From assembly GCA_016937945.1 (NCBI GenBank), contig JAFGVP010000175.1:1-33687 (forward strand): a DNA stretch of 33,687 nucleotides, written 5' to 3'. The stretch comes from Pontiellaceae bacterium (GTDB lineage: Bacteria > Verrucomicrobiota > Kiritimatiellia > Kiritimatiellales > Pontiellaceae). Position numbers and translations under genes: made by a program. Shown here piece by piece: positions 3,286 to 12,156 of this stretch. The notes under the pieces are model-generated. The model was not told the DNA's origin. It searched no databases and saw only the letters and a list, made by a program, of their open reading frames with translations. Positions within the stretch are counted from its first letter, which is position 1; each line of letters starts with the position of its first letter.

Positions 3286-4059
3286 CTAGACCTGGAAACT
3301 ATCACGGCGCGTCCGCGGCGGCTGGCTCGGATGGACCCGCTTGCATTTGTCATTCAGCCAGGATCCGACTGGAAGCTTTTCGAGCTTGTCGAGATTCTTG
3401 ATCAACCACTCGCTTCGCCCTTTGTGAGCAATAATCTCTCCGCGTTCATCACGAACCAGAATCAGGTATTTGCTCGGCTTTTCGCCACGCGGATACAGGC
3501 TGTAAAGGTTGTAATAGATCACATTGTAGGTGTTCGGCGTATTGTACTCGAAACGGAACTTGTTCTTCTTATTGAGACGAAACGGCTTACTCGTGACGTG
3601 AGCAATCAGGTGATACTTGTCCGGATCATAGTTCTGTTCCGTAAAGACATACATTTCAACAACCAGATCATGATTATATTCCTTGGTCGACTTCTGCTTA
3701 ATCAGCGCCCCGAACGAAGCATCGATCACATATATGGGATGGTTTTGTGTGGTGCTTCCGCCATTCGACACCCAGGCCTCCGCTGTAAACTCCTTAGGCT
3801 GGCTGGATTCACGATAATCGACACTCAGATCCGGCGGATTCATCAGTTCCACATAAGCCTGATCGACCTCGCTCAGCTGATCAAAGGGTATCTTGACGAT
3901 TTTTCCGTTTGCATCGCTGATGTTTACGGCATCAAAGCCGAAGTTTACATATTCACCTTCCAGCGTCGTTCCGGAAGTACTCGTCCAGAGGCGTGATTCC
4001 GCATGCGAAATGCATGCGCAAAACAACACCGCGATAATCAATCCATATATCCTGTTCAT
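3286..4059 (-). CDS. Secreted protein with SHD1-like module
   Basis: This is an uncharacterised exported protein of 257 residues. The ATG at 4059 gives an ideal signal peptide (MNRIYG, then a hydrophobic run ending in SHA, cleavage near residue 20) with AAGGA about 9 bases upstream. A 20-codon longer frame exists but would bury the signal peptide. Residues ~22-70 (RLWTSTSGTTLEGEY, then IPFDQLSEVDQAYVE) resemble the SLA1 homology domain 1 (SHD1) module often found in secreted PVC proteins: a W-T/S-x-G-x-x-x-x-G start and an I-P-x-x-x-L-S-x-x-D end. The remainder is hydrophilic with beta-like segments and no recognised catalytic motif. The 62-base gap to the upstream TonB/PA14-like gene suggests a shared transcript. 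The function is unknown and the domain call is from motif memory only. Confidence 0.6.
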   Translation of the reverse strand: MNRIYGLIIAVLFCACISHAESRLWTSTSGTTLEGEYVNFGFDAVNISDANGKIVKIPFDQLSEVDQAYVELMNPPDLSVDYRESSQPKEFTAEAWVSNGGSTTQNHPIYVIDASFGALIKQKSTKEYNHDLVVEMYVFTEQNYDPDKYHLIAHVTSKPFRLNKKNKFRFEYNTPNTYNVIYYNLYSLYPRGEKPSKYLILVRDERGEIIAHKGRSEWLIKNLDKLEKLPVGSWLNDKCKRVHPSQPPRTRRDSFQV

Positions 4060-4121
4060 AAGGCAGTTCCTTTGATCTAGTCCAAATCCATATATTCTTG
4101 ATACCTGATTCATGACCAATC

Positions 4122-5270
4122 CTATAGGTCGTTGAAATAGGTGGTTACGTTGGTCACATTGGCTTCATCCTTGTACAGGTTCATCAGGATGGAATCCTGA
4201 AGACCCCAGGACAACGGCTCCAGGGCAAAGACCGGGAACATCGGCTGACCATACTCATTGAGTGGATATTTTTCGCCCTGCACTTCCACCATCAACATGG
4301 CATAGAACTCTCCTCCAGGGCCCTCACCGGCAACTGCATCAAAGTCGTGTGCAACACCAGGTTCCAGCGTAATCCAGGAGCTGCCGACCATCACCGAGTC
4401 GGCCATCTTATAGCTGCCGGCGTCATCCAGAATACCGCGACTCCCCGGAGCCTCATTCCCCCACCATTCCTGAGCAATGGTGTAGGCATCCACGCCGTCC
4501 CACGGGAAGTTGGCAGCGAGTACCACCTTCTTATCGATGGCAACGGTCAGCACATCATCACTGACCCCCCAGAAACGAAAGGTAATGCCATCCTTGTGCA
4601 CCAGCTTGCCGCGATAATGCGCGGCCCAGCATGCCGCATCCTCATAACTCTCACCAAAGGCAACAGGTCCCATGCAGGAAGTAACGATCGGAATGAATAC
4701 GGTGGTTGCATAAAGCTTGGTTGGAGAGTGGTAATAGCGCTTCAGCAGCGCCGTATTCCACCCGGAATCGACAAAGCGCTTCAGAATATTAAAATACTCT
4801 TTATGAGCCATCGATGTGTTAACGGAACCATTGGCATGGCGCTTCATACAGTAAAAGGTAACTTCAAGGTCATTACCACTGGTTACACCGCCGCCGAACA
4901 GGCTCATCTCTCCGATCTCCGGAAGTTCCATAAATTCACCACCAACACCGACGCCACCCAGCAGTCCTTCTCCCGTTCCTTCCAGATCAGGGAGCATGAT
5001 CTCCGGCATATCCCGGGTTTTAACCTTAGCGACAATCCGGGAGGAAGGCTTTGGATTGGAACTTTTCTGGACCTTTACCTTCGGCTTTTTCAACTGCATT
5101 TTAGGACGCTCAACCGGCGGAGGAGGAACAAATTCAGGATCCTTCTTGGTTACGACAGTAAAGACCACAAAAAGGCCGGCGATAAAGAAAGCCGCCACAT
5201 GCAGCAGAAGACTCACAACGAGGCCGCTTGGCGCTCCTTTGCTGACCCGGTTTTTCCCAGTTTTTTTCAT
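4122..5270 (-). CDS. Inner-membrane-anchored protein, TonB-like N-terminus and PA14-like C-terminal region
   Basis: This 382-residue protein has a basic N-terminus, one membrane helix (about residues 14-37), then a proline/lysine-rich linker (PPPPVERPKMQLKKPK) of the type found in TonB energy transducers. A glycine-rich segment with GGVGVGG follows. The C-terminal half is not the TonB fold: a segment around GITFRFWGVSDDVLTVAIDKK resembles PA14-like domains, in which a chamber of beta strands carries W/D-rich loops. The ATG at 5270 is preferred over an upstream TTG because GGAG sits 9 bases before it. A likely orientation is cytoplasmic N-terminus and periplasmic PA14-like domain, perhaps binding a glycan. 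No ExbB/ExbD gene is adjacent. Precise function unknown. Confidence 0.55.
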   Translation of the reverse strand: MKKTGKNRVSKGAPSGLVVSLLLHVAAFFIAGLFVVFTVVTKKDPEFVPPPPVERPKMQLKKPKVKVQKSSNPKPSSRIVAKVKTRDMPEIMLPDLEGTGEGLLGGVGVGGEFMELPEIGEMSLFGGGVTSGNDLEVTFYCMKRHANGSVNTSMAHKEYFNILKRFVDSGWNTALLKRYYHSPTKLYATTVFIPIVTSCMGPVAFGESYEDAACWAAHYRGKLVHKDGITFRFWGVSDDVLTVAIDKKVVLAANFPWDGVDAYTIAQEWWGNEAPGSRGILDDAGSYKMADSVMVGSSWITLEPGVAHDFDAVAGEGPGGEFYAMLMVEVQGEKYPLNEYGQPMFPVFALEPLSWGLQDSILMNLYKDEANVTNVTTYFNDL

Positions 5271-5661
5271 ATAATCCAACTCCAACTCTTTTATTGAAAC
5301 GAGAAACTACCCGAGAGGCTAACACGGGTACTTACTTCCGGTTCACAACCCGTATTATTTACCTCTTTATCAAGCGCTACAATTCAAATTTACACCTGAA
5401 AAGTTCGCATTCCTCTATGGGTACGTCCTTAACGAAGAAACTATTTGAAAAAAACGCACTTTTTCCCCTTCACTCCATTTGTCACGAAATTTTAGGTAAA
5501 ATGCAACTTAAACTGTTCACATATGATAAAAACATGGATATTCCCTTCGCTCACTCAAATAAGCAGAGGCTTCAGAAAACAGGTATCAAGCCTTTCCCCA
5601 AAGCGTGAACGCCCAGAGAAAAACCGCCCTTCCGGATAGCGGAGAATTTGAGGAAAAAAGG
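5271..5661 (-). other. 390-base intergenic leader region
   Basis: This gap separates the mlaD stop from the TonB/PA14-like start. Near the mlaD end is a weak terminator candidate (5617-5642). Near the downstream gene are three short complementary blocks in the probable leader: ACCCG at 5309-5313, CGGGT at 5325-5329 and ACCCG at 5348-5352, so two mutually exclusive 5-bp hairpins can form. A 104-codon plus-strand frame at 5294-5608 has no ribosome binding site or recognisable content and is not called. No clear sigma70 promoter is visible, although AT-rich sequence is abundant. Confidence 0.4.
5617..5642 (-). terminator. Weak terminator candidate after mlaD
   Basis: On the minus strand, CCGC (5639-5642) can pair with GCGG (5624-5627) and is followed immediately by five T residues. 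The stem is only 4 bp with a long loop, so this is a low-strength candidate. Its position about 20 bases after the mlaD stop fits the end of the long lipid-transport operon. Confidence 0.4.
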
Positions 5662-6591
5662 TTAGAATGCACCAAATAGAACGCTACTGAACGAGGTGAT
5701 CGGAGACGCTTCCCGCAGATCATCAATGGCCGCCCGGGTATCTTCAACCATCAGTGTGACCTCATCATACAGCTTATCATCCCGCACCAGTTTACCCAGG
5801 GTTCCCTCGCCGGAATTGATCTGCTCGGTGATACCGCGGACCGCTTTCATGATCGCATCAAGATCGCCATACACACCATCTTCGCCGGAAACCAGTTTAC
5901 CAAGCGTCCCTTCGCCGGACGCCAACCGATCACTGACTTCCCGAAGATTCGCCATCAACTGCTGAAGATCATTATACACCTGCTCATCTTTCATCAGCTT
6001 TCCGATGGTACCCTCGCCGTTTTCAAGACGCACTCCCATGGCCTGAAGCTGATCACTGACCGAAACCAGATTATTATAGATAGCATCATCATGAAGCAGC
6101 TTGCCCAGCGTGCCTTCGCCCCGGTTGACGCCATCGATCATGTCCTGAATACCCTGCACAGCGGCACTGAGCTCTTCTATGACATCCACTGGAGGTGCAC
6201 CTAGAATGGTTACATTTTCCCCCATCACATCAGCGCCCAGGGGGCCTTCATAGATCTTCAGATATTTACCTCCAAGCATGGAGGCATTCACGATCTCGAT
6301 TTTATAACCGGAACGAAGTTCGATCGGGACATCCAGCGTAACATAGATATGCACCTGATCATCTTCCAGCGAAGTCTGCCGAACCCGTCCGATGTTCATA
6401 CCGCGCAAATAGACGTTATCCCCCTCACGCAGCCCGCTGACCTCGCTGAACACAAATTCGTACTGATAGGAGGTTTTGAAGAAATTGTCGCGACTCAGAA
6501 CAATCGTGAACACCCCCAAAGCAATCAGCACGGTGAACATGAACAGACCAACAAGAATTTCAATCGAGATTTCGCGCCTGTGCTTATCCAT
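5662..6591 (-). CDS. MCE-family (MlaD-like) lipid-binding protein with GEGTLGKL repeats
   Basis: Membrane-anchored substrate-binding component of an Mla-type lipid ABC transporter. The 309-residue protein has one N-terminal membrane helix (residues ~11-33), an MCE domain at about 40-115 (EFVFSEVSGLREGDNVYLRG, then GGKYLKIYEG), and an amphipathic C-terminal tail. The tail holds four copies of a repeat beginning GEGT(L/I)GKL and continuing to a D-x-x-(V/L/I)Y-x-(D/N/E)-(L/V) motif, at residues 158, 192, 226 and 261, a 34-35 residue period. The start ATG overlaps the MlaF stop by 8 bases, indicating translational coupling. The MCE domain would assemble as a periplasmic ring on the MlaE/MlaF complex. 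The repeats are predicted helical and may form a needle or tether. The lipid and direction of transport cannot be told from sequence. Confidence 0.88.
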   Translation of the reverse strand: MDKHRREISIEILVGLFMFTVLIALGVFTIVLSRDNFFKTSYQYEFVFSEVSGLREGDNVYLRGMNIGRVRQTSLEDDQVHIYVTLDVPIELRSGYKIEIVNASMLGGKYLKIYEGPLGADVMGENVTILGAPPVDVIEELSAAVQGIQDMIDGVNRGEGTLGKLLHDDAIYNNLVSVSDQLQAMGVRLENGEGTIGKLMKDEQVYNDLQQLMANLREVSDRLASGEGTLGKLVSGEDGVYGDLDAIMKAVRGITEQINSGEGTLGKLVRDDKLYDEVTLMVEDTRAAIDDLREASPITSFSSVLFGAF

Positions 6592-7348
6592 GAATCAACT
6601 CTTCCCATTTACCTTTTTTCGTAATGTACTGCGATTCGAGAAAACTCTGAACCGTTTCGTTCTGTGACCGAATAAAATCGGCGGGCGGCGCGTTTTCCAC
6701 AATGCGACCCTGATGCAGCATCATGATTCGCGAACCGATAGCCAACGCACTATGCAGATCATGTGTCACGACCACACTCGTAATGCCCAGCCGCTCGCGC
6801 ATATCCACGATCAAATCATCAATCCGGCGCGATGTAACCGGATCGAGACCGGATGTAGGCTCATCATACAATACGATTTTCGGATTCATGATAATAGCCC
6901 GAGCCAGTCCGGCACGCTTCTGCATACCGCCCGAAATATCGGACGGAAACTTTTCCGCCGCATCAGCGAGCCCCAGCAGCTCCAATCGATCATCCACCTG
7001 CTTCCGGATCTCGTCATCAGACATTCGTGTGTGCTCGCGCAACGGAAGCCCTACATTATCGCGAACATTCATCCACTGCAGCAGGGCTGCCCCCTGGAAG
7101 AGCACCCCGAACTTTCTCCGAAGTTCCTGCAGTTCCCTTCGATCCGCGGCGACAAGATCTTCGTTATCAATATAAATACGGCCTGAATCCGGCTGCATCA
7201 GTCGAATAATATGCTTTAGTGTCACACTCTTTCCGGCGCCGGACAGCCCAACAATCACAAAGGTTTCGCCCTCGCCGATTTCAAAGTCGACCTGATCAAG
7301 CACGGCCCGACCACCCAGCACCTTGGTCACATTTTCAAACCGGATCAT
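6584..7348 (-). CDS. mlaF: Mla-type ABC transporter ATP-binding protein (MlaF-like)
   Basis: This 254-residue nucleotide-binding subunit powers lipid transport by the MlaE permease. Its motifs are intact: Walker A GLSGAGKS (residues 34-41), Q-loop in VLFQGAALLQWM, the LSGG-equivalent signature ISGGMQKRAGLARA, Walker B with catalytic glutamate in VLYDEPTSGLDP, and H-loop VVTHD. The phrase SGGMQKR is typical of the Mla/Ttg2A subfamily. The ATG at 7348 shares the ATGA overlap with the MlaE stop at 7345; the longer open frame upstream is a shadow of MlaE. It is followed by mlaD with an 8-base overlap, so all three subunits are coupled in translation. Confidence 0.93.
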   Translation of the reverse strand: MIRFENVTKVLGGRAVLDQVDFEIGEGETFVIVGLSGAGKSVTLKHIIRLMQPDSGRIYIDNEDLVAADRRELQELRRKFGVLFQGAALLQWMNVRDNVGLPLREHTRMSDDEIRKQVDDRLELLGLADAAEKFPSDISGGMQKRAGLARAIIMNPKIVLYDEPTSGLDPVTSRRIDDLIVDMRERLGITSVVVTHDLHSALAIGSRIMMLHQGRIVENAPPADFIRSQNETVQSFLESQYITKKGKWEELIHG

Positions 7349-8133
7349 ATGTAGAACAACCTCGTGATCATGTAACCGACGACCAGAATAATCAGGAAAG
7401 ATATAATCACGGAACGCCGGGTAGCCTTGCCCACCCCGACAGCCCCTTCGCGCGTGACAAAACCCTGATGACAAGCAACCGTCACGATGATGATTCCAAA
7501 AACAAATGCTTTGAGCAGACCGACGTATAGATCTTTGTTCGCCGCAAACTGAGTGGCATTATCCATATAGGCCCGCACAGAAACCCCCAGCTGAGTTGCT
7601 CCGACCACGGCGCCGCCCATTATTCCGAGAATATTCGTATATACCGTAAGGATCGGCATCATGACAGCAAGAGCAACCAAACGGGGCATTACCAGAAACC
7701 GGTTGGGATTGATGCTCATGACCTCCAGAGCCGCCACCTCTTCCGAAACCGTCATTGTACCGAGCTGGGCTGCAATAGCTGAACCAACACTGGCAGCAAT
7801 GATCAATCCGGTCATGAAGGGCCCCATCTCCCGAATCATGGTCACGGCCACGGCTGAACCGATAAACTCTTCATAACCCCAACGCTTGAGCTCAAGGCCG
7901 GTCTGGAGAGCAAGAATCATCCCTGTAAAGAGCGCCACTACAGTGATCACGGCGAGACTCTTGATGCCGGTTACATAAAGCTGCGTGAACGTTTCCTGAC
8001 GGCTCCGACGCCCGAAGGCATGACGAATAAACCAGATCGCCTCGAACAGCATAAACATCGCCTGTCCGGTATTATGGAGCAGATGCAGCACCTTTGCTCC
8101 CGTTCGCTCAGCAGAGCGTACGGGATACTGCAT
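7345..8133 (-). CDS. mlaE: Mla-type ABC transporter permease (MlaE-like)
   Basis: Integral inner-membrane permease, 262 residues, the usual size. It has the family layout: an amphipathic N-terminus, then about five hydrophobic helices including LAVITVVALFTGMILALQ and the C-terminal SVIISFLIILVVGYMIT. The conserved cytoplasmic coupling segment GTMTVSEEVAALEVMSINP is clear, as is EMGPFMTGLIIAASVGSAIAA. The start at 8133 has a weak ribosome binding site, so coupling to the upstream repeat-protein gene, which ends 20 bases earlier, is likely. It precedes mlaF with an ATGA overlap. MlaB and MlaC genes are absent from the window. Confidence 0.93.
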   Translation of the reverse strand: MQYPVRSAERTGAKVLHLLHNTGQAMFMLFEAIWFIRHAFGRRSRQETFTQLYVTGIKSLAVITVVALFTGMILALQTGLELKRWGYEEFIGSAVAVTMIREMGPFMTGLIIAASVGSAIAAQLGTMTVSEEVAALEVMSINPNRFLVMPRLVALAVMMPILTVYTNILGIMGGAVVGATQLGVSVRAYMDNATQFAANKDLYVGLLKAFVFGIIIVTVACHQGFVTREGAVGVGKATRRSVIISFLIILVVGYMITRLFYI

Positions 8134-8153
8134 ATAGTCTATGGGCGACCGGG

Positions 8154-9446
8154 CTATGGCTGACTCTCCTCTTCTCCGAAATGCATAAACAAAAACCGGA
8201 AACTATGGCTTTCCTCATTTTTCTTATACCCGAGTAATCCTTTAAGCAAGGACCATTCAACAGAGGCTTCCCCCCGTGACTGCCGATAAAGACCCCACAG
8301 CAGATGGTGCCCTGTGGTATCATCCACCTTTTCACGGCGATACAGGGTCCAGATCGGTGCCCAGTTACGCTCGACACCGGGAGTATCCCTCAGCGGCCAC
8401 AACTCCAGCATGCGAAACCGGGTGTCCTTTCCGTGCCGCTCCCAGCTCATCAACGGCCACGCTTTCCAATAACGTTCGACCACATCACCAACCTCAACAT
8501 CATCCTTAGAACCCGTGGCCAGTATCGATTCCGACTGAAAGACAGGTATGATGACGAAACGGTGCTGTTCCTGATCAACAAGCTGAACCCGACTGTTCCA
8601 TATCACCGGCCAGCACCAGAATTGTCGCCGGAGCGTACCGACCTCCTTTTTCCCGTAGATCGGCCAGTAATAACGTTTGTAAACATCTCCGTCGCTCCAC
8701 TGAACAAACGGATAAGGTGCATGAATTAAACGCTGCCCCCGCCCTTCCGAAAAACGGAACAGCGGCGGCACAAACCATTGATTACGTCCCTGCTCCGAAA
8801 CAACGCGGCCGTAGATCGGCATGAGAATAAAACCACCGCCGGGATTACGTTCATTGGTGTAGCGTACCGATGAATAGATCGGCCAAAGTACAAAACGCTT
8901 TTGATACTCACCTTCCAGCGAACTGCTTCCATAAAACGGCCAGACACGAAATCGGGAAACACCTTCTCCCGACGTCTTTGACCCAACCGGCCACAAGATC
9001 GATGTTGTGTGCAAATCATTGATACTCGACTCGGCATAAAGCGGAAAAAGAACAAAGCTCAAGCGATCGCGCCCAAGAAACTCATGTATGGTTCCCCCGA
9101 GAGGAAAGAGCGCAAAATAGTTTTCGCCGGCTGCATCCGTACCCTGGAAATAGAACGGAAGAATCCAGGTGCGATCCCGCTCGGTCTCCGGCGAAAAATC
9201 CAGACTGTATCCAAAGAAAAGGAGTCGGCTATAGGTTTCATCCTTGAATCCCTTTCGCGTGTAGATCGGCCACAGATAATCTTTCCGCCAGCGCTCCGTC
9301 TCGACGGAGCTCGAATAAAACGGCCGCCACGCCTCAAAATGTGCGCCGCGGTCAGACTGAATCTCTTCATGAAAAGGATCCCAGTCAAAGCCGGCCCACG
9401 CAGAAGCGCAGTATAGAACAAGGAGAATGGACAAAAACGGCTTCAT
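8154..9446 (-). CDS. Secreted WPxY-repeat protein of unknown function
   Basis: No recognised family. From the ATG at 9446 the product is 430 residues with a signal peptide (MKPFLSILLVLYCASAWAG, cleavage after AWA). Almost the whole mature chain is a degenerate repeat, one unit per ~18-25 residues, each built as a beta-type strand followed by a (L/V/Y)WP(I/F/V/L)(Y/F) core and a polar loop. Examples are YLWPIY, FVLFPLY, RVWPFYG, VLWPIYS, ILMPIYG and YYWPIYG; about 20 units can be traced. This suggests a beta-barrel or beta-solenoid with aromatic belts. The ATG overlaps the stop of the LolC/E-like gene (ATGA), and MlaE starts 20 bases after its stop, so it is embedded in an envelope-lipid operon. 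It may be an outer-membrane or periplasmic partner of that transport, but this is an inference from context. Confidence 0.7.
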   Translation of the reverse strand: MKPFLSILLVLYCASAWAGFDWDPFHEEIQSDRGAHFEAWRPFYSSSVETERWRKDYLWPIYTRKGFKDETYSRLLFFGYSLDFSPETERDRTWILPFYFQGTDAAGENYFALFPLGGTIHEFLGRDRLSFVLFPLYAESSINDLHTTSILWPVGSKTSGEGVSRFRVWPFYGSSSLEGEYQKRFVLWPIYSSVRYTNERNPGGGFILMPIYGRVVSEQGRNQWFVPPLFRFSEGRGQRLIHAPYPFVQWSDGDVYKRYYWPIYGKKEVGTLRRQFWCWPVIWNSRVQLVDQEQHRFVIIPVFQSESILATGSKDDVEVGDVVERYWKAWPLMSWERHGKDTRFRMLELWPLRDTPGVERNWAPIWTLYRREKVDDTTGHHLLWGLYRQSRGEASVEWSLLKGLLGYKKNEESHSFRFLFMHFGEEESQP

Positions 9447-10672
9447 TCGTACCTCAATGCATCCACAGGTTCTTTCCATGCCGCGATAATTGCCGGAATA
9501 AGGCCGGCAAGTGTGCAGAAAATCAGCACCAGCCCGCAGACAATCGAAACATCGAGACCGGAGGTATGGCTCGGAAGCCGGCTTAGCTGATACAGCTCCG
9601 GCGGCAACAGCTCCAGATTAAACTCACTCGACATAAACATTAAAAGTTCATTCCGGAAGCGCAGGACAAGCATCGCCAGTCCAACCCCCAGAATATTTCC
9701 GATAACCCCCTGAACCAGCCCCATGCTGAAGAATACACCCGTAATACCGCCGTTTCCGAATCCAAGTGATTTCAGCAACCCGATTTCCCTCGTTTTCTGC
9801 ACGGTTAGAGTGATTAGCGTATTGGTGATGCTGAATGCCGCCACCAAAGCCACAAACGCCAAAAGGAAAAACATCATGTTTTTCTCAACATGCAGTGCTG
9901 CAAAAATCTGGCTATGCATTTCCATCCAGGTTCGCGGATAAAACCGATACCCTAAACGCTCACGCATTGATGCAGCGACCGGCGCCGCCATCATCGGATC
10001 ATCAAGGACCACCTGTACGGAATGCACACCCTGCTCCACATCATAGAGCGCCCGCGCCGTATCAAGCGATGCGAAGGCAAATCCGACATCATATTCATAC
10101 ATCCCTACATGAAAAACGCCGGACACGGTCAAATCCACCGGAAGACGAATCTCATCTTCAGACACCAGACTTTGGGGAGAATAAACCGTCAGGACATCCC
10201 CTACCCAGACATCCAGACGCCTGGCCAAGTCACTGCCGATCACAATCTTTTCACCACTGACATCAAAGCTTCCGGCAATCATGCTCCCTGGAACTCGGCT
10301 GACCCGTTCCTCGTAGACCGGGTCCACCCCTCGAAGAAGCGGAGTCATGGTTCGGTCTTCGGTTTGAAGAAGAACCAACCCTTCCAGACTCGGCGCGGCT
10401 CCCTTTACCGAGCTCATCCCCTCAAGCTTCTGGATCAGCTGATCGGGATCATTAACAATCCCTCCCTGCTCGACAATGCTGATATGCGGATTGAATCCGA
10501 GAATCTTGTCCCGCCAGACTTCGTCAAAACCGGTCATCACTGACAGGACCACGATCAGTACCGCAACACCGATCGTCACGCCAAGCATGGAAATTACGGT
10601 GACAGCAGAGACAATCGACCGTTTCGGCTTCAGATATTTGATTGCAAGATATAGGGAAAAAGGAAGTTTCAT
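9443..10672 (-). CDS. lolC: Lipoprotein-releasing ABC transporter permease (LolC/LolE family)
   Basis: Inner-membrane permease of the MacB/LolCE type, 409 residues, the standard length. Topology is one N-terminal helix (SIVSAVTVISMLGVTIGVAVLIV around 20-45), a large periplasmic domain (about 50-265), then three C-terminal helices (MMFFLLAFVALVAAFSITNT, VFFSMGLVQGVIGNILGVGL, and VSIVCGLVLIFCTLAGLIPA). The N-terminal motif LAIKYLKPKR and the phrase QKTREIGLLKSLGF are strongly conserved in LolC/E. GGAG lies 5 bases before the ATG. The partner ATPase LolD is not next to it, so it must lie elsewhere if this is a Lol system. It is coupled by ATGA overlap to the WPxY-repeat gene. Whether it acts as LolC, LolE or a merged homodimeric LolF-type cannot be decided. 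Confidence 0.88.
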   Translation of the reverse strand: MKLPFSLYLAIKYLKPKRSIVSAVTVISMLGVTIGVAVLIVVLSVMTGFDEVWRDKILGFNPHISIVEQGGIVNDPDQLIQKLEGMSSVKGAAPSLEGLVLLQTEDRTMTPLLRGVDPVYEERVSRVPGSMIAGSFDVSGEKIVIGSDLARRLDVWVGDVLTVYSPQSLVSEDEIRLPVDLTVSGVFHVGMYEYDVGFAFASLDTARALYDVEQGVHSVQVVLDDPMMAAPVAASMRERLGYRFYPRTWMEMHSQIFAALHVEKNMMFFLLAFVALVAAFSITNTLITLTVQKTREIGLLKSLGFGNGGITGVFFSMGLVQGVIGNILGVGLAMLVLRFRNELLMFMSSEFNLELLPPELYQLSRLPSHTSGLDVSIVCGLVLIFCTLAGLIPAIIAAWKEPVDALRYE

Positions 10673-10736
10673 TCACGCTCCGTAAAAATCACGCTTTTCA
10701 TAACTGCTGAAGAACAGGCCATAAATCCGACCCCAA

Positions 10737-11273
10737 TCAGCGTATATTCAGCAGCACCTCATCAAACCGCCACCAGTCATCGTCTTCAGCATTTCGGAAA
10801 ACCTCTACAACCAGCATAACATACACCTGCTCCGTTCCAGGAAGAATTACCGCATCATCGATCTTAACCGGCATAAAAGCGGTGCCGGGCGAAGTGACTC
10901 CGGACCGATATTCCTTGATCAGGTTATTCTTGGTATCCATGCACAGTACAGCCAGACATACCTTTGAATTTGCGGACTGCACCACGCTGATCGCGGACAC
11001 ATCAACCTGCACCTCAACAATACGCCCGACCTCAATCCCCGATAGCGCCTGTACACACGCGCGTGTTTCCGCGGCATCACCTTTTTTGACACGACAGACA
11101 GCCGCCGACTCTCCCTTCGAAACCTTTTTGTGATCAATTGACCAGCCGGCCCCGCGAATGGCCCAGCCCGAATAATCCCGGCTCTCGAATCCGGCGTTTT
11201 TCAGTGCAAGCCCCGCATGCCCGACGGAGCAGCACAGAAGCAACAGCAGTATGGTCAAACGACTCACATTCAT
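10737..11273 (-). CDS. Secreted carbohydrate-binding-module-like protein
   Basis: A 178-residue exported protein I cannot place firmly. The ATG at 11273 gives a clear signal peptide (MNVSRLTILLLLLCCSVGHA, cleavage after GHA) and lies 7 bases after the FAH-family gene stop; the longer frame only overlaps that gene. The mature start LKNAGFESRDYSGWAIRGAGW resembles the opening of CBM4/CBM22-like or discoidin-like jelly-roll modules (N-x-G-F-E-x-x-x-x-x-G-W), and the end DDWWRFDEVLL resembles their last strand. It probably forms a single beta-sandwich that binds sugar or another ligand. The 64-base gap to the lolC-like gene suggests it is in the same operon. Confidence 0.55.
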   Translation of the reverse strand: MNVSRLTILLLLLCCSVGHAGLALKNAGFESRDYSGWAIRGAGWSIDHKKVSKGESAAVCRVKKGDAAETRACVQALSGIEVGRIVEVQVDVSAISVVQSANSKVCLAVLCMDTKNNLIKEYRSGVTSPGTAFMPVKIDDAVILPGTEQVYVMLVVEVFRNAEDDDWWRFDEVLLNIR

Positions 11274-11280
11274 ACGCGCC

Positions 11281-12156
11281 TCAGCATTCCACGTGGAGCG
11301 ATTCACATTCTTGTACGACTGATCGCTGACTACCCAGTCCGTCGACGCCCACCTCAATCACATCTCCGGCCCGCATCAAAACCTTCGGATCACGCGCAGA
11401 ACCGATACCGGGAGGGGTTCCCGTTGAAATCACATCACCGGGAAGCAAAGTCATTCCCCGTGAAATATATTCAATTAGGAACGGAATAGAAAACAGCAGG
11501 TCCGATGTGCAGCCATCCTGAAGAATCGTTCCGTTATACTTTTGCCAGACCCGCAGATTGTCCACATTGTCCACTTCGTCCGGCGTAACCAGAAAAGGCC
11601 CGATCGGGCAGAATGTGTCAAAACCCTTGCCTCGAAACCACTGAGATCCCGCACGTTGAACAATGCGTTCGGTCACATCATTCAATACGGTGTAGCCGGC
11701 AACATAATCCATTGCGCGCTGCCTCGACACAGACTTTGCCTCACGGGAAATCACAACCGCAAGTTCGGCTTCACTATCAACCACCTGTGCCTCTGCCGGT
11801 AGTACTATCTCATCATTTGGCCCGACAATCGCAGAGATTGCCTTTGAAAACAGAATTGGTTCCGACGGCACGTCATGACCGAACTCCTTCGCATGAGCGG
11901 CATAGTTGGCTCCGACGCAAATAATCTTTGATGGAATGGTAATCGGAGGACCGAGCCGGACTGCTGAAGAGTCGACATAAACCGCGCCGGGATCGGCAAT
12001 TAATTGGCGGAGCATATGCATCCCGAAGCCTGAAAAAAAATGGGCATCGAAGTCTTGCAAATGAAACGCAGAGGCACGCACATCAAGGATGCGGCCATCG
12101 CCCATCCATACGCCCGGGCATTCCAAGCCTTTTTCTCCAAATCGAACCAGCTTCAT
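11281..12156 (-). CDS. Fumarylacetoacetate hydrolase (FAH) family protein
   Basis: The 291-residue protein is a member of the metal-dependent FAH superfamily that cleaves C-C bonds in acylpyruvate-type substrates (for example fumarylpyruvate, 2,4-diketo-3-deoxy sugar acids, or oxaloacetate). The core starts near residue 75 with KIICVGANYAAHAKEFG. Metal ligands are visible as the E-x-E pair in DSEAELAVVI (E129, E131) and a later aspartate (D160 in LNDVTER). The signature end GDVISTGTPPGIGSA is intact. A GGGAG ribosome binding site precedes the ATG. It is the first gene of the long minus-strand run leading to the lipid transporters, with a promoter candidate upstream (12194-12222), but has no obvious link with them. 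Substrate not predictable. Confidence 0.88.
   Translation of the reverse strand: MKLVRFGEKGLECPGVWMGDGRILDVRASAFHLQDFDAHFFSGFGMHMLRQLIADPGAVYVDSSAVRLGPPITIPSKIICVGANYAAHAKEFGHDVPSEPILFSKAISAIVGPNDEIVLPAEAQVVDSEAELAVVISREAKSVSRQRAMDYVAGYTVLNDVTERIVQRAGSQWFRGKGFDTFCPIGPFLVTPDEVDNVDNLRVWQKYNGTILQDGCTSDLLFSIPFLIEYISRGMTLLPGDVISTGTPPGIGSARDPKVLMRAGDVIEVGVDGLGSQRSVVQECESLHVEC

What the first reader, a model, noticed from the sequence alone, without database searches (positions are those of the whole stretch)
8154..9446. A secreted WPxY-repeat protein embedded in a lipid-transport operon
The mature protein is an array of about 20 degenerate units with a hydrophobic strand, a WP(I/F/V)(Y/F) core and a polar loop, which I cannot match to any family I know. 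It sits between a LolC/E-type permease (ATGA overlap) and MlaE (20-base gap), so it is translated together with both. A repeat fold with aromatic belts could form a barrel or bridge that moves or binds lipids across the periplasm, filling the role of the missing MlaC or MlaA.
Basis: partly seen in the sequence, partly recalled or inferred. Interest (0 to 1): 0.7.

Follow-up and report, generated by a model that had tools for sequence, protein, structure and literature searches.

The report
Unnamed partner of MlaEFD lipid transporters
A secreted repeat protein that belongs to no catalogued family is encoded, in two groups of bacteria, next to a pump thought to move lipids between the two cell membranes, and it may be the missing bridge between those membranes.

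Summary
Window 8154-9446 (-) encodes a 430-aa secreted protein of about 20 degenerate WPxY units. It overlaps a LolC/E-type permease by ATGA and ends 20 bases before mlaE. It has no Pfam, NCBIfam or PDB match.

Homologues ('REP') occur in 92 of 97 sampled genomes of its class. MlaE follows REP in 49 of 50, 71 of 75 and 40 of 48 testable loci. In a second phylum, 15 of 20 fetched loci again have REP beside MlaE or MlaD, mostly at the other end of the operon. The LolC neighbour is confined to the window's own lineage. MlaC and MlaA were not found in this genome, nor in 221 fetched REP loci with queries from two loci. MlaD's model shows no beta-barrel.

AlphaFold (pLDDT 95) predicts 41 short strands; Foldseek finds no global match, only weak likeness to single-layer sheets among other folds. 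I read it as a long amphipathic beta-ribbon, about 180-190 Å if straight, carrying lipid between MlaEFD and the outer membrane. The partnership is well supported; the bridge is inferred.

The parts
8154..9446 (-). REP: 430-aa secreted WPxY-repeat protein
   Evidence: ORF and translation; matches in 52 of 58 genomes, own genome included; model pLDDT 95.3
9393..9446 (-). signal peptide (residues 1-18, AWA|GF by eye; no lipobox)
   Evidence: sequence and helix 2-17 in the model
8175..9371 (-). repeat array, 41 short strands (residues 26-424), interrupted by a helical insert at residues 356-366
   Evidence: DSSP of the model; repeat profile
8346..8372 (-). conserved motif [VI]ER[NS]W[AS]P[LIW]W (from residue 358) near the C-terminus; candidate docking site (inferred)
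   Evidence: alignments; pattern used; helices 356-361 and 363-366
7345..8133 (-). mlaE, permease
   Evidence: PF02405 239.1 bits
6584..7348 (-). mlaF, ATPase
   Evidence: PF00005 114.7 bits; ATGA overlap
5662..6591 (-). mlaD: one N-terminal helix, MCE domain, helical tail with GTLGKL repeats, no barrel in the model
   Evidence: PF02470 54.5 bits; model pLDDT 80.2, low in the tail
9443..10672 (-). LolC/E-type permease, lineage-specific neighbour
   Evidence: TIGR02212 300.5 bits, below cut-off; linkage counts

Best explanation
REP is a dedicated periplasmic (in some relatives lipid-anchored) subunit of a distinct type of MlaEFD lipid transporter whose operon lacks MlaC and MlaA. About 20 beta-hairpins stack into one long antiparallel sheet about six residues wide. 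At every other turn the motif [LIV][WF]P[LIF][YF] lies on the same edge, so a continuous aromatic and hydrophobic lane runs along the ribbon while the other edge is polar. One end docks on the MlaD ring or MlaE and the other reaches the outer membrane; acyl chains slide along the lane. Shown: the family, the repeats, the gene linkage, and that MlaC/MlaA were not found. Predicted: the strands. Inferred: the overall shape of the ribbon, docking, lipid binding and direction of transport.
For: Linkage: MlaE follows REP on the same strand in 49 of 50 (own locus included), 71 of 75 and 40 of 48 testable loci, from sets of 53, 79 and 49. In a second phylum, of 20 loci that I picked from 84 hits, 15 have REP beside MlaD or MlaE: 12 after MlaD, 3 before MlaE. 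Each of the 127 genomes of the window's phylum with a strong REP match is also listed with MlaE (chance 3e-6 ignoring kinship). MlaC in 4 of 57 and MlaA in 5 of 57 class genomes, neither in the window's genome. Where REP's place is known as well (G213, G055, G056 for both; G047 for MlaA) they lie on another contig than REP. MlaC/MlaA ORFs of L240 and L241 hit L233, L240 and L241 but none of 221 REP loci (59 of these loci are under 5 kb). Model pLDDT 95.3, pTM 0.83. Hydrophobic fraction, averaged over 16 units, is 0.69-0.99 at offsets -4 to +2 (the proline apart) and 0.13-0.38 at the offsets around them. MlaD has no barrel in its model, as PMC10665443 (passages) reports for PVC bacteria.
Against: No lipid binding, docking or localisation was tested. 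Foldseek matches are weak: in the 50 rows shown per library the TM-score is at most 0.23 by query and 0.33 by target length, and the top PDB rows are large eukaryotic complexes; OspA starts at rank 12 and the CPAP domain at rank 36. MORN1, the analogue I lean on, has its groove filled by its own aromatics and did not bind lipid vesicles (PMC7725318, passages). REP stands apart from mlaE in 1, 4 and 8 testable loci and has no Mla gene beside it in L215, L219, L220 and L221. 5 of 97 class genomes lack REP and 4 of those 5 have MlaE. In the whole sample 140 of 161 genomes without a strong REP match have MlaE, so MlaE does not need REP, though these may be other MCE systems.
Confidence: 0.5

Rival explanations
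1. REP is a fourth Mla subunit but a scaffold or regulator: a rigid rod that holds MlaD at a set distance from the outer membrane or peptidoglycan, with its hydrophobic edge buried by self-packing or dimerisation. It carries no lipid itself.
For: The same gene linkage. In MORN1 crystal structures aromatic residues fill the groove and stabilise it (PMC7725318, passages). The conserved ER[NS]W[AS]P helical insert suggests a protein docking site.
Against: MlaC and MlaA were not found in the genome and MlaD has no barrel in its model, so something else has to carry lipid between the membranes.
Confidence: 0.25
2. REP is a soluble shuttle or outer-membrane lipid acceptor (a functional stand-in for MlaC or MlaA) that binds one or few lipids and is not a span-length bridge.
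For: Gene order mlaE-F-D-REP in 9 of 20 second-phylum loci puts REP after mlaD, where mlaC stands in L240 and L241. No lipobox in most members.
Against: A regular repeat of about 20 hairpins is more than a shuttle needs. In the second phylum 7 of 20 members have a lipobox by a crude pattern, which fits anchoring better than shuttling.
Confidence: 0.15
3. REP is an outer-membrane beta-barrel or porin-like protein.
For: All-beta secreted protein with many aromatic residues; porins and VDAC appear in the Foldseek list.
Against: Strands average 5.9 residues, longest 8; no Pfam outer-membrane family in 66 members.
Confidence: 0.04
4. REP's place beside mlaEFD is inherited gene order without a shared function.
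For: In the loci read from the window's phylum REP, where linked, is always upstream of mlaE; loci with REP apart exist.
Against: A second phylum has the same partners mostly in another order; each of 127 strong REP genomes has MlaE.
Confidence: 0.06

Closest known systems
Mla system of E. coli type (MlaFEDCB + MlaA)
   Same: MlaE, MlaF and MlaD core; a secreted partner gene in the operon
   Different: MlaC and MlaA not found in this genome; REP in their place
MlaEFD of Veillonella parvula with elongated beta-barrel MlaD (PMC10665443, abstract and passages)
   Same: lacks MlaA and MlaC, so another link to the outer membrane is needed
   Different: there MlaD itself ends in a barrel; here MlaD has none in its model and a separate repeat protein is present
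MORN-repeat proteins such as TbMORN1 (PMC7725318, passages)
   Same: short hairpin repeats with regularly placed aromatics; the closest structure named there, the CPAP G-box, is also among the Foldseek hits here (4bxr, ranks 36 and 37)
   Different: no MORN match in Pfam; WPxY turn instead of YEGEW and GxG; unit mostly 16-21 residues; secreted
TamB/YhdP/AsmA-like and LptA-type bridges (recalled)
   Same: proposed role: a beta structure conducting lipid across the periplasm
   Different: those have longer strands (recalled) and Pfam domains; none of these domains matched any of 66 members
NCBIfam NF047486 LA_1737_Cterm (Leptospira family, taxon recalled)
   Same: faint similarity: 1 of 66 members E 0.042, one long paralogue E 0.0016
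   Different: 18.4 bits against a cut-off of 60; not membership

Membership tests
MlaEFD (MCE-type) lipid transporter | MlaE permease, MlaF ATPase and MlaD MCE protein in one operon | tested here: met
   MlaF is an ABC ATPase placed by its neighbours, its best NCBIfam hits are below cut-off
E. coli-type Mla pathway | MlaC shuttle (PF05494) | tested here: not met
   not found in G000 (draft, 94.56% complete); 4 of 57 class genomes; in G213, G055 and G056 on another contig than REP, G323's REP place unknown
E. coli-type Mla pathway | MlaA lipoprotein (PF04333) | tested here: not met
   not found in G000; 5 of 57 class genomes
Long barrel-ended MlaD bridge | C-terminal beta-barrel on MlaD | tested here: not met
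   model of window MlaD: strands only within 42-114 plus stray bridges, then helices; pLDDT low in the tail
MORN repeat | match to the MORN profile | tested here: not met
   none of 66 members at E up to 1
MORN repeat | elongated antiparallel sheet of short hairpins with an aromatic-lined groove | tested here: inconclusive
   short strands with short turns predicted; local hits to OspA, CPAP domain, viral MORN protein, but TM-score at most 0.23 by query and no coordinates
Outer-membrane beta-barrel | strands long enough to cross the membrane (about 9 or more residues, recalled) | tested here: not met
   41 strands, mean 5.9, maximum 8
AsmA/TamB-type bridge | Pfam AsmA/TamB domain | tested here: not met
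   no such family in 66 members
Lipid-transport protein in function | binds or conducts lipid | not testable with these tools
   needs biochemistry

The most novel reading that the evidence does not exclude
A new architecture of transenvelope lipid bridge: a single-layer, MORN-like beta-ribbon with a hydrophobic WPxY lane about 180-190 Å long, working with barrel-less MlaEFD in the Kiritimatiellia and their relatives and in a second phylum, and answering how MlaEFD reaches the outer membrane where MlaA, MlaC and the MlaD barrel are all absent.
Probability: 0.4. Interest if true: 0.87.

Novelty: new variant of a known kind. Interest (0 to 1): 0.74.

Why it matters
PMC10665443 (abstract and passages) proposes MlaEFD as the ancestral core and finds the MlaD barrel completely absent from PVC and FCB bacteria, which leaves open how their MlaEFD reaches the outer membrane. 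REP is a conserved gene, in no family library searched here, that sits in such operons, so the question becomes testable by deletion, pull-down and structure. A cultured carrier exists: the record titled Pontiella sulfatireligans F21(T) has LolC, REP and mlaEFD in a row (L063). If REP carries lipid it would be a new bridge architecture beside MCE tunnels, barrel-ended MlaD, beta-taco proteins and soluble shuttles (the last two recalled).

Tried and rejected
Barrel: disfavoured on strand length. LolC as a fixed partner: rejected, lineage-specific. Known family: none in Pfam, NCBIfam or PDB sequences. Viral contigs and plasmids: no relative, by searches that reach close relatives best; phage records were not searched. 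LA_1737 lead: faint, and no relevant paper. VIA-align structure comparison: library not available. Promoter and terminator scan of 5000-11500: no excess over shuffles. Rfam: one tRNA only. Papers: ten searches showed no description of this family in their listings; the library lacks most subscription journals. Only two papers were opened, for passages (PMC10665443, PMC7725318); the rest were seen as listings.

MlaE loci without REP: 20 regions fetched, 19 with genes shown (L239 too short). No ORF in them matched the REP profile at E 1e-3 and no gene shown had more than 4 motif matches. L240 and L241 are MlaEFD-MlaC-MlaA operons; L233 also holds MlaC- and MlaA-like ORFs.

Counting notes. The three locus sets overlap: G052, G053 and G054 appear in two of them, and species of the first two sets partly coincide. 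The first set includes the window's own locus (L002). The third set holds the 20 best loci and 29 that I picked; the 11 loci L174-L184, fetched as weak matches, most of them in long ORFs, were left out of the count. L206 is the same genome as L133. Many loci are cut 1.5 kb from REP, so MlaF and MlaD counts there are lower bounds. The HMMs contained fused ORFs and gave spurious labels; one search uses those rebuilt. The 127 strong genomes (92 in class, 35 outside, E below 1e-20) and 10 weak ones were counted by eye and checked by eye against the rows. The MlaC/MlaA search used ORFs of two loci, one of them an overlapping spurious frame, and could miss diverged copies. In one search I chose the 16 unit positions from the invariant and near-invariant prolines.

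Full report
OBSERVATION. The ORF at 8154-9446 (-) encodes 430 aa with a signal peptide followed by AWA|GF. The [WFYLIVM]P[LIVFWYM][YFWLVIMG] core occurs 13 times against 1.5 +/- 1.2 in shuffles, maximum 7 in 20,000. In a 66-sequence alignment 22 columns are invariant, 14 of them prolines, and 11 of the 13 steps between these are 16-21 residues. No family in Pfam or NCBIfam fits the protein; among 66 members only single stray matches above E 0.01 appear. No PDB sequence fits (one match at E 1.4).

DISTRIBUTION. Among the window's genome and its nearest relatives 52 of 58 match; the misses are G015, G020, G022, G033, G034 and G037. A scan of one genome per species found 189 stretches that encode a relative, of which the best 79 loci were kept; the titles are mostly Kiritimatiellales, Pontiella, Kiritimatiellia or Verrucomicrobia, with some under other names and one labelled Desulfuromonadales. 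With profile A3, 137 of 288 sampled genomes of the window's phylum match: 92 of 97 in the class, 35 outside it with E below 1e-20, and 10 weaker ones (counted by eye). Several of the weak hits lie in long ORFs, such as 799-1,421 aa in L178-L180. The tool does not name the phylum; by record titles it is the Verrucomicrobiota of GTDB (name recalled), while NCBI puts Pontiella in a phylum of its own, Kiritimatiellota.

SECOND PHYLUM. The genome behind L133 is titled Desulfuromonadales, an order of Thermodesulfobacteriota in NCBI. In the phylum in which the tool places it 84 of 247 genomes match. None of these scores above 403 bits, whereas the class of the window reaches 651, so this is not the window's phylum again under new handles. 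That is an inference, since the tool tells no kinship here.

GENE NEIGHBOURHOOD. REP is followed by mlaE on the same strand in 49 of 50, 71 of 75 and 40 of 48 testable loci. The testable exceptions are L049; L122, L123, L127 and L131; and L168, L172, L187-L189 and L191-L193. Of the rest, 2, 4 and 1 loci ended too soon and L054 had no REP above 100 bits. An upstream LolC within 1 kb is found in 22 of 49, 15 of 71 and 0 of 46 loci with enough sequence. The 22 are all in the window's genus or family, and the 15 encode REP at least 52% identical to the window's. In the second phylum 20 of 84 hits were fetched, spread down the score list. 12 have REP after MlaD (9 as mlaE-F-D-REP; L216 without an MlaF hit; L223 and L224 without MlaE), 3 have REP before MlaE (L206, L212, L218), and 5 have no Mla gene beside REP (L215, L219, L220, L221, and L210, whose contig ends near REP). 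In L222 the gap to MlaD is about 0.6 kb. The same partners in another order speak against mere inherited order.

WHAT IS MISSING. MlaC is found in 4 of 57 class genomes and MlaA in 5 of 57; neither is found in the window's genome, a draft of 94.56% completeness. In G213, G055 and G056 both lie on another contig than REP, as does MlaA in G047; for G323 the place of REP is not known. L240 (G213) and L241 (G143) are MlaEFD operons that end in MlaC and MlaA, and both genomes also carry REP upstream of mlaE elsewhere (L152 and L186). MlaC/MlaA ORFs from these two loci hit none of 221 REP loci, 121 of which are 10 kb or longer and 59 under 5 kb. The MlaD model has an N-terminal helix, an MCE domain and then helices, with low confidence in the tail and no barrel. 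PMC10665443 (passages) reports that the barrel is completely absent in PVC and FCB bacteria. REP is not required by every MlaE: 140 of 161 genomes without a strong REP match have MlaE.

STRUCTURE. The model of REP (66 sequences, pLDDT 95.3, pTM 0.83) has 41 strands, mean 5.9 residues, with 36 of 40 gaps of 5 residues or fewer. In most units the WP turn alternates with a turn of 2-3 residues on the other side. Averaged over 16 units, offsets -4 to +2 around the proline are hydrophobic in 69-99% of sequences (proline apart) and the other offsets from -10 to +11 in 13-38%. Foldseek lists 784 PDB and 535 viral matches up to E 10; 5 and 3 are at E 0.001 or better, the five PDB ones in large eukaryotic complexes and two of the three viral ones in phage tail or baseplate proteins, the third unnamed. 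The highest TM-score shown is 0.23 by query and 0.33 by target length. Lower in the lists stand OspA (from rank 12), the CPAP domain 4bxr (ranks 36 and 37) and a viral MORN protein (rank 4 of the viral list), which are single-layer sheets as far as I recall, together with many propellers and some porins. PMC7725318 (passages) describes TbMORN1 as an elongated antiparallel sheet with an aromatic-lined groove, 80 Å long for 9 repeats, nearest in structure to the CPAP G-box. [quoted passage not shown] By that scale REP would be about 182 Å, or 190 Å as a flat sheet. These lengths assume a straight ribbon and are not measured.

ANCHORING. By a crude pattern a lipobox was found in 1 of 50, 7 of 79, 0 of 20 and 7 of 20 REP proteins of four sets. 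The window protein has none. So the protein seems soluble or lipid-anchored depending on lineage.

MECHANISM. Best reading: REP replaces MlaC and MlaA in a distinct MlaEFD type and conducts lipid along its hydrophobic edge. The partnership I put at about 0.85, lipid conduction by a bridge at about 0.5. A scaffold role is the main rival, and the MORN1 facts above fit it as well.

NOVELTY. Ten searches of the paper library listed no paper that describes the family. The transporter core is known; the subunit is not in the family libraries searched. I therefore call it a new variant of a known kind, with a bolder reading in the section on the most novel reading.

Noticed in passing
L174 3541-6828 (-), own genome contig C24: A 1,096-aa lipoprotein-like ORF (LLLAGCTTSS) made of similar FPLYY/LPWW repeats, matching the REP profile at E 3.9e-11. 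Comparable long ORFs occur in L175-L180, L182 and L183 with no Mla gene detected in the fetched stretch.
   Followed up: partly
5662-6591 (-), MlaD: The MlaD tail carries repeated GEGTLGKL segments and a conserved C-terminus ending SPITxFxSxxFGAF, a possible docking point for REP.
   Followed up: partly
4122-5285 (-): ORF downstream of mlaD that looks TonB-like at its N-terminus by eye (one hydrophobic stretch, then proline- and lysine-rich) and has no Pfam match.
   Followed up: no
L223 and L224: MlaD and REP adjacent without MlaE in the fetched stretch; in L223 two ABC ATPases precede them that look, by eye, like parts of a branched-chain amino-acid transporter.
   Followed up: no
3286-4119 (-): SHD1-domain protein (PF03983, 25.8 bits) next to the operon.
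   Followed up: no
LolC neighbours in L002-L024: Upstream permeases of the genus fall into two groups by best BLAST segment, roughly 66-82% and 44-49% identical to the window's.
   Followed up: no
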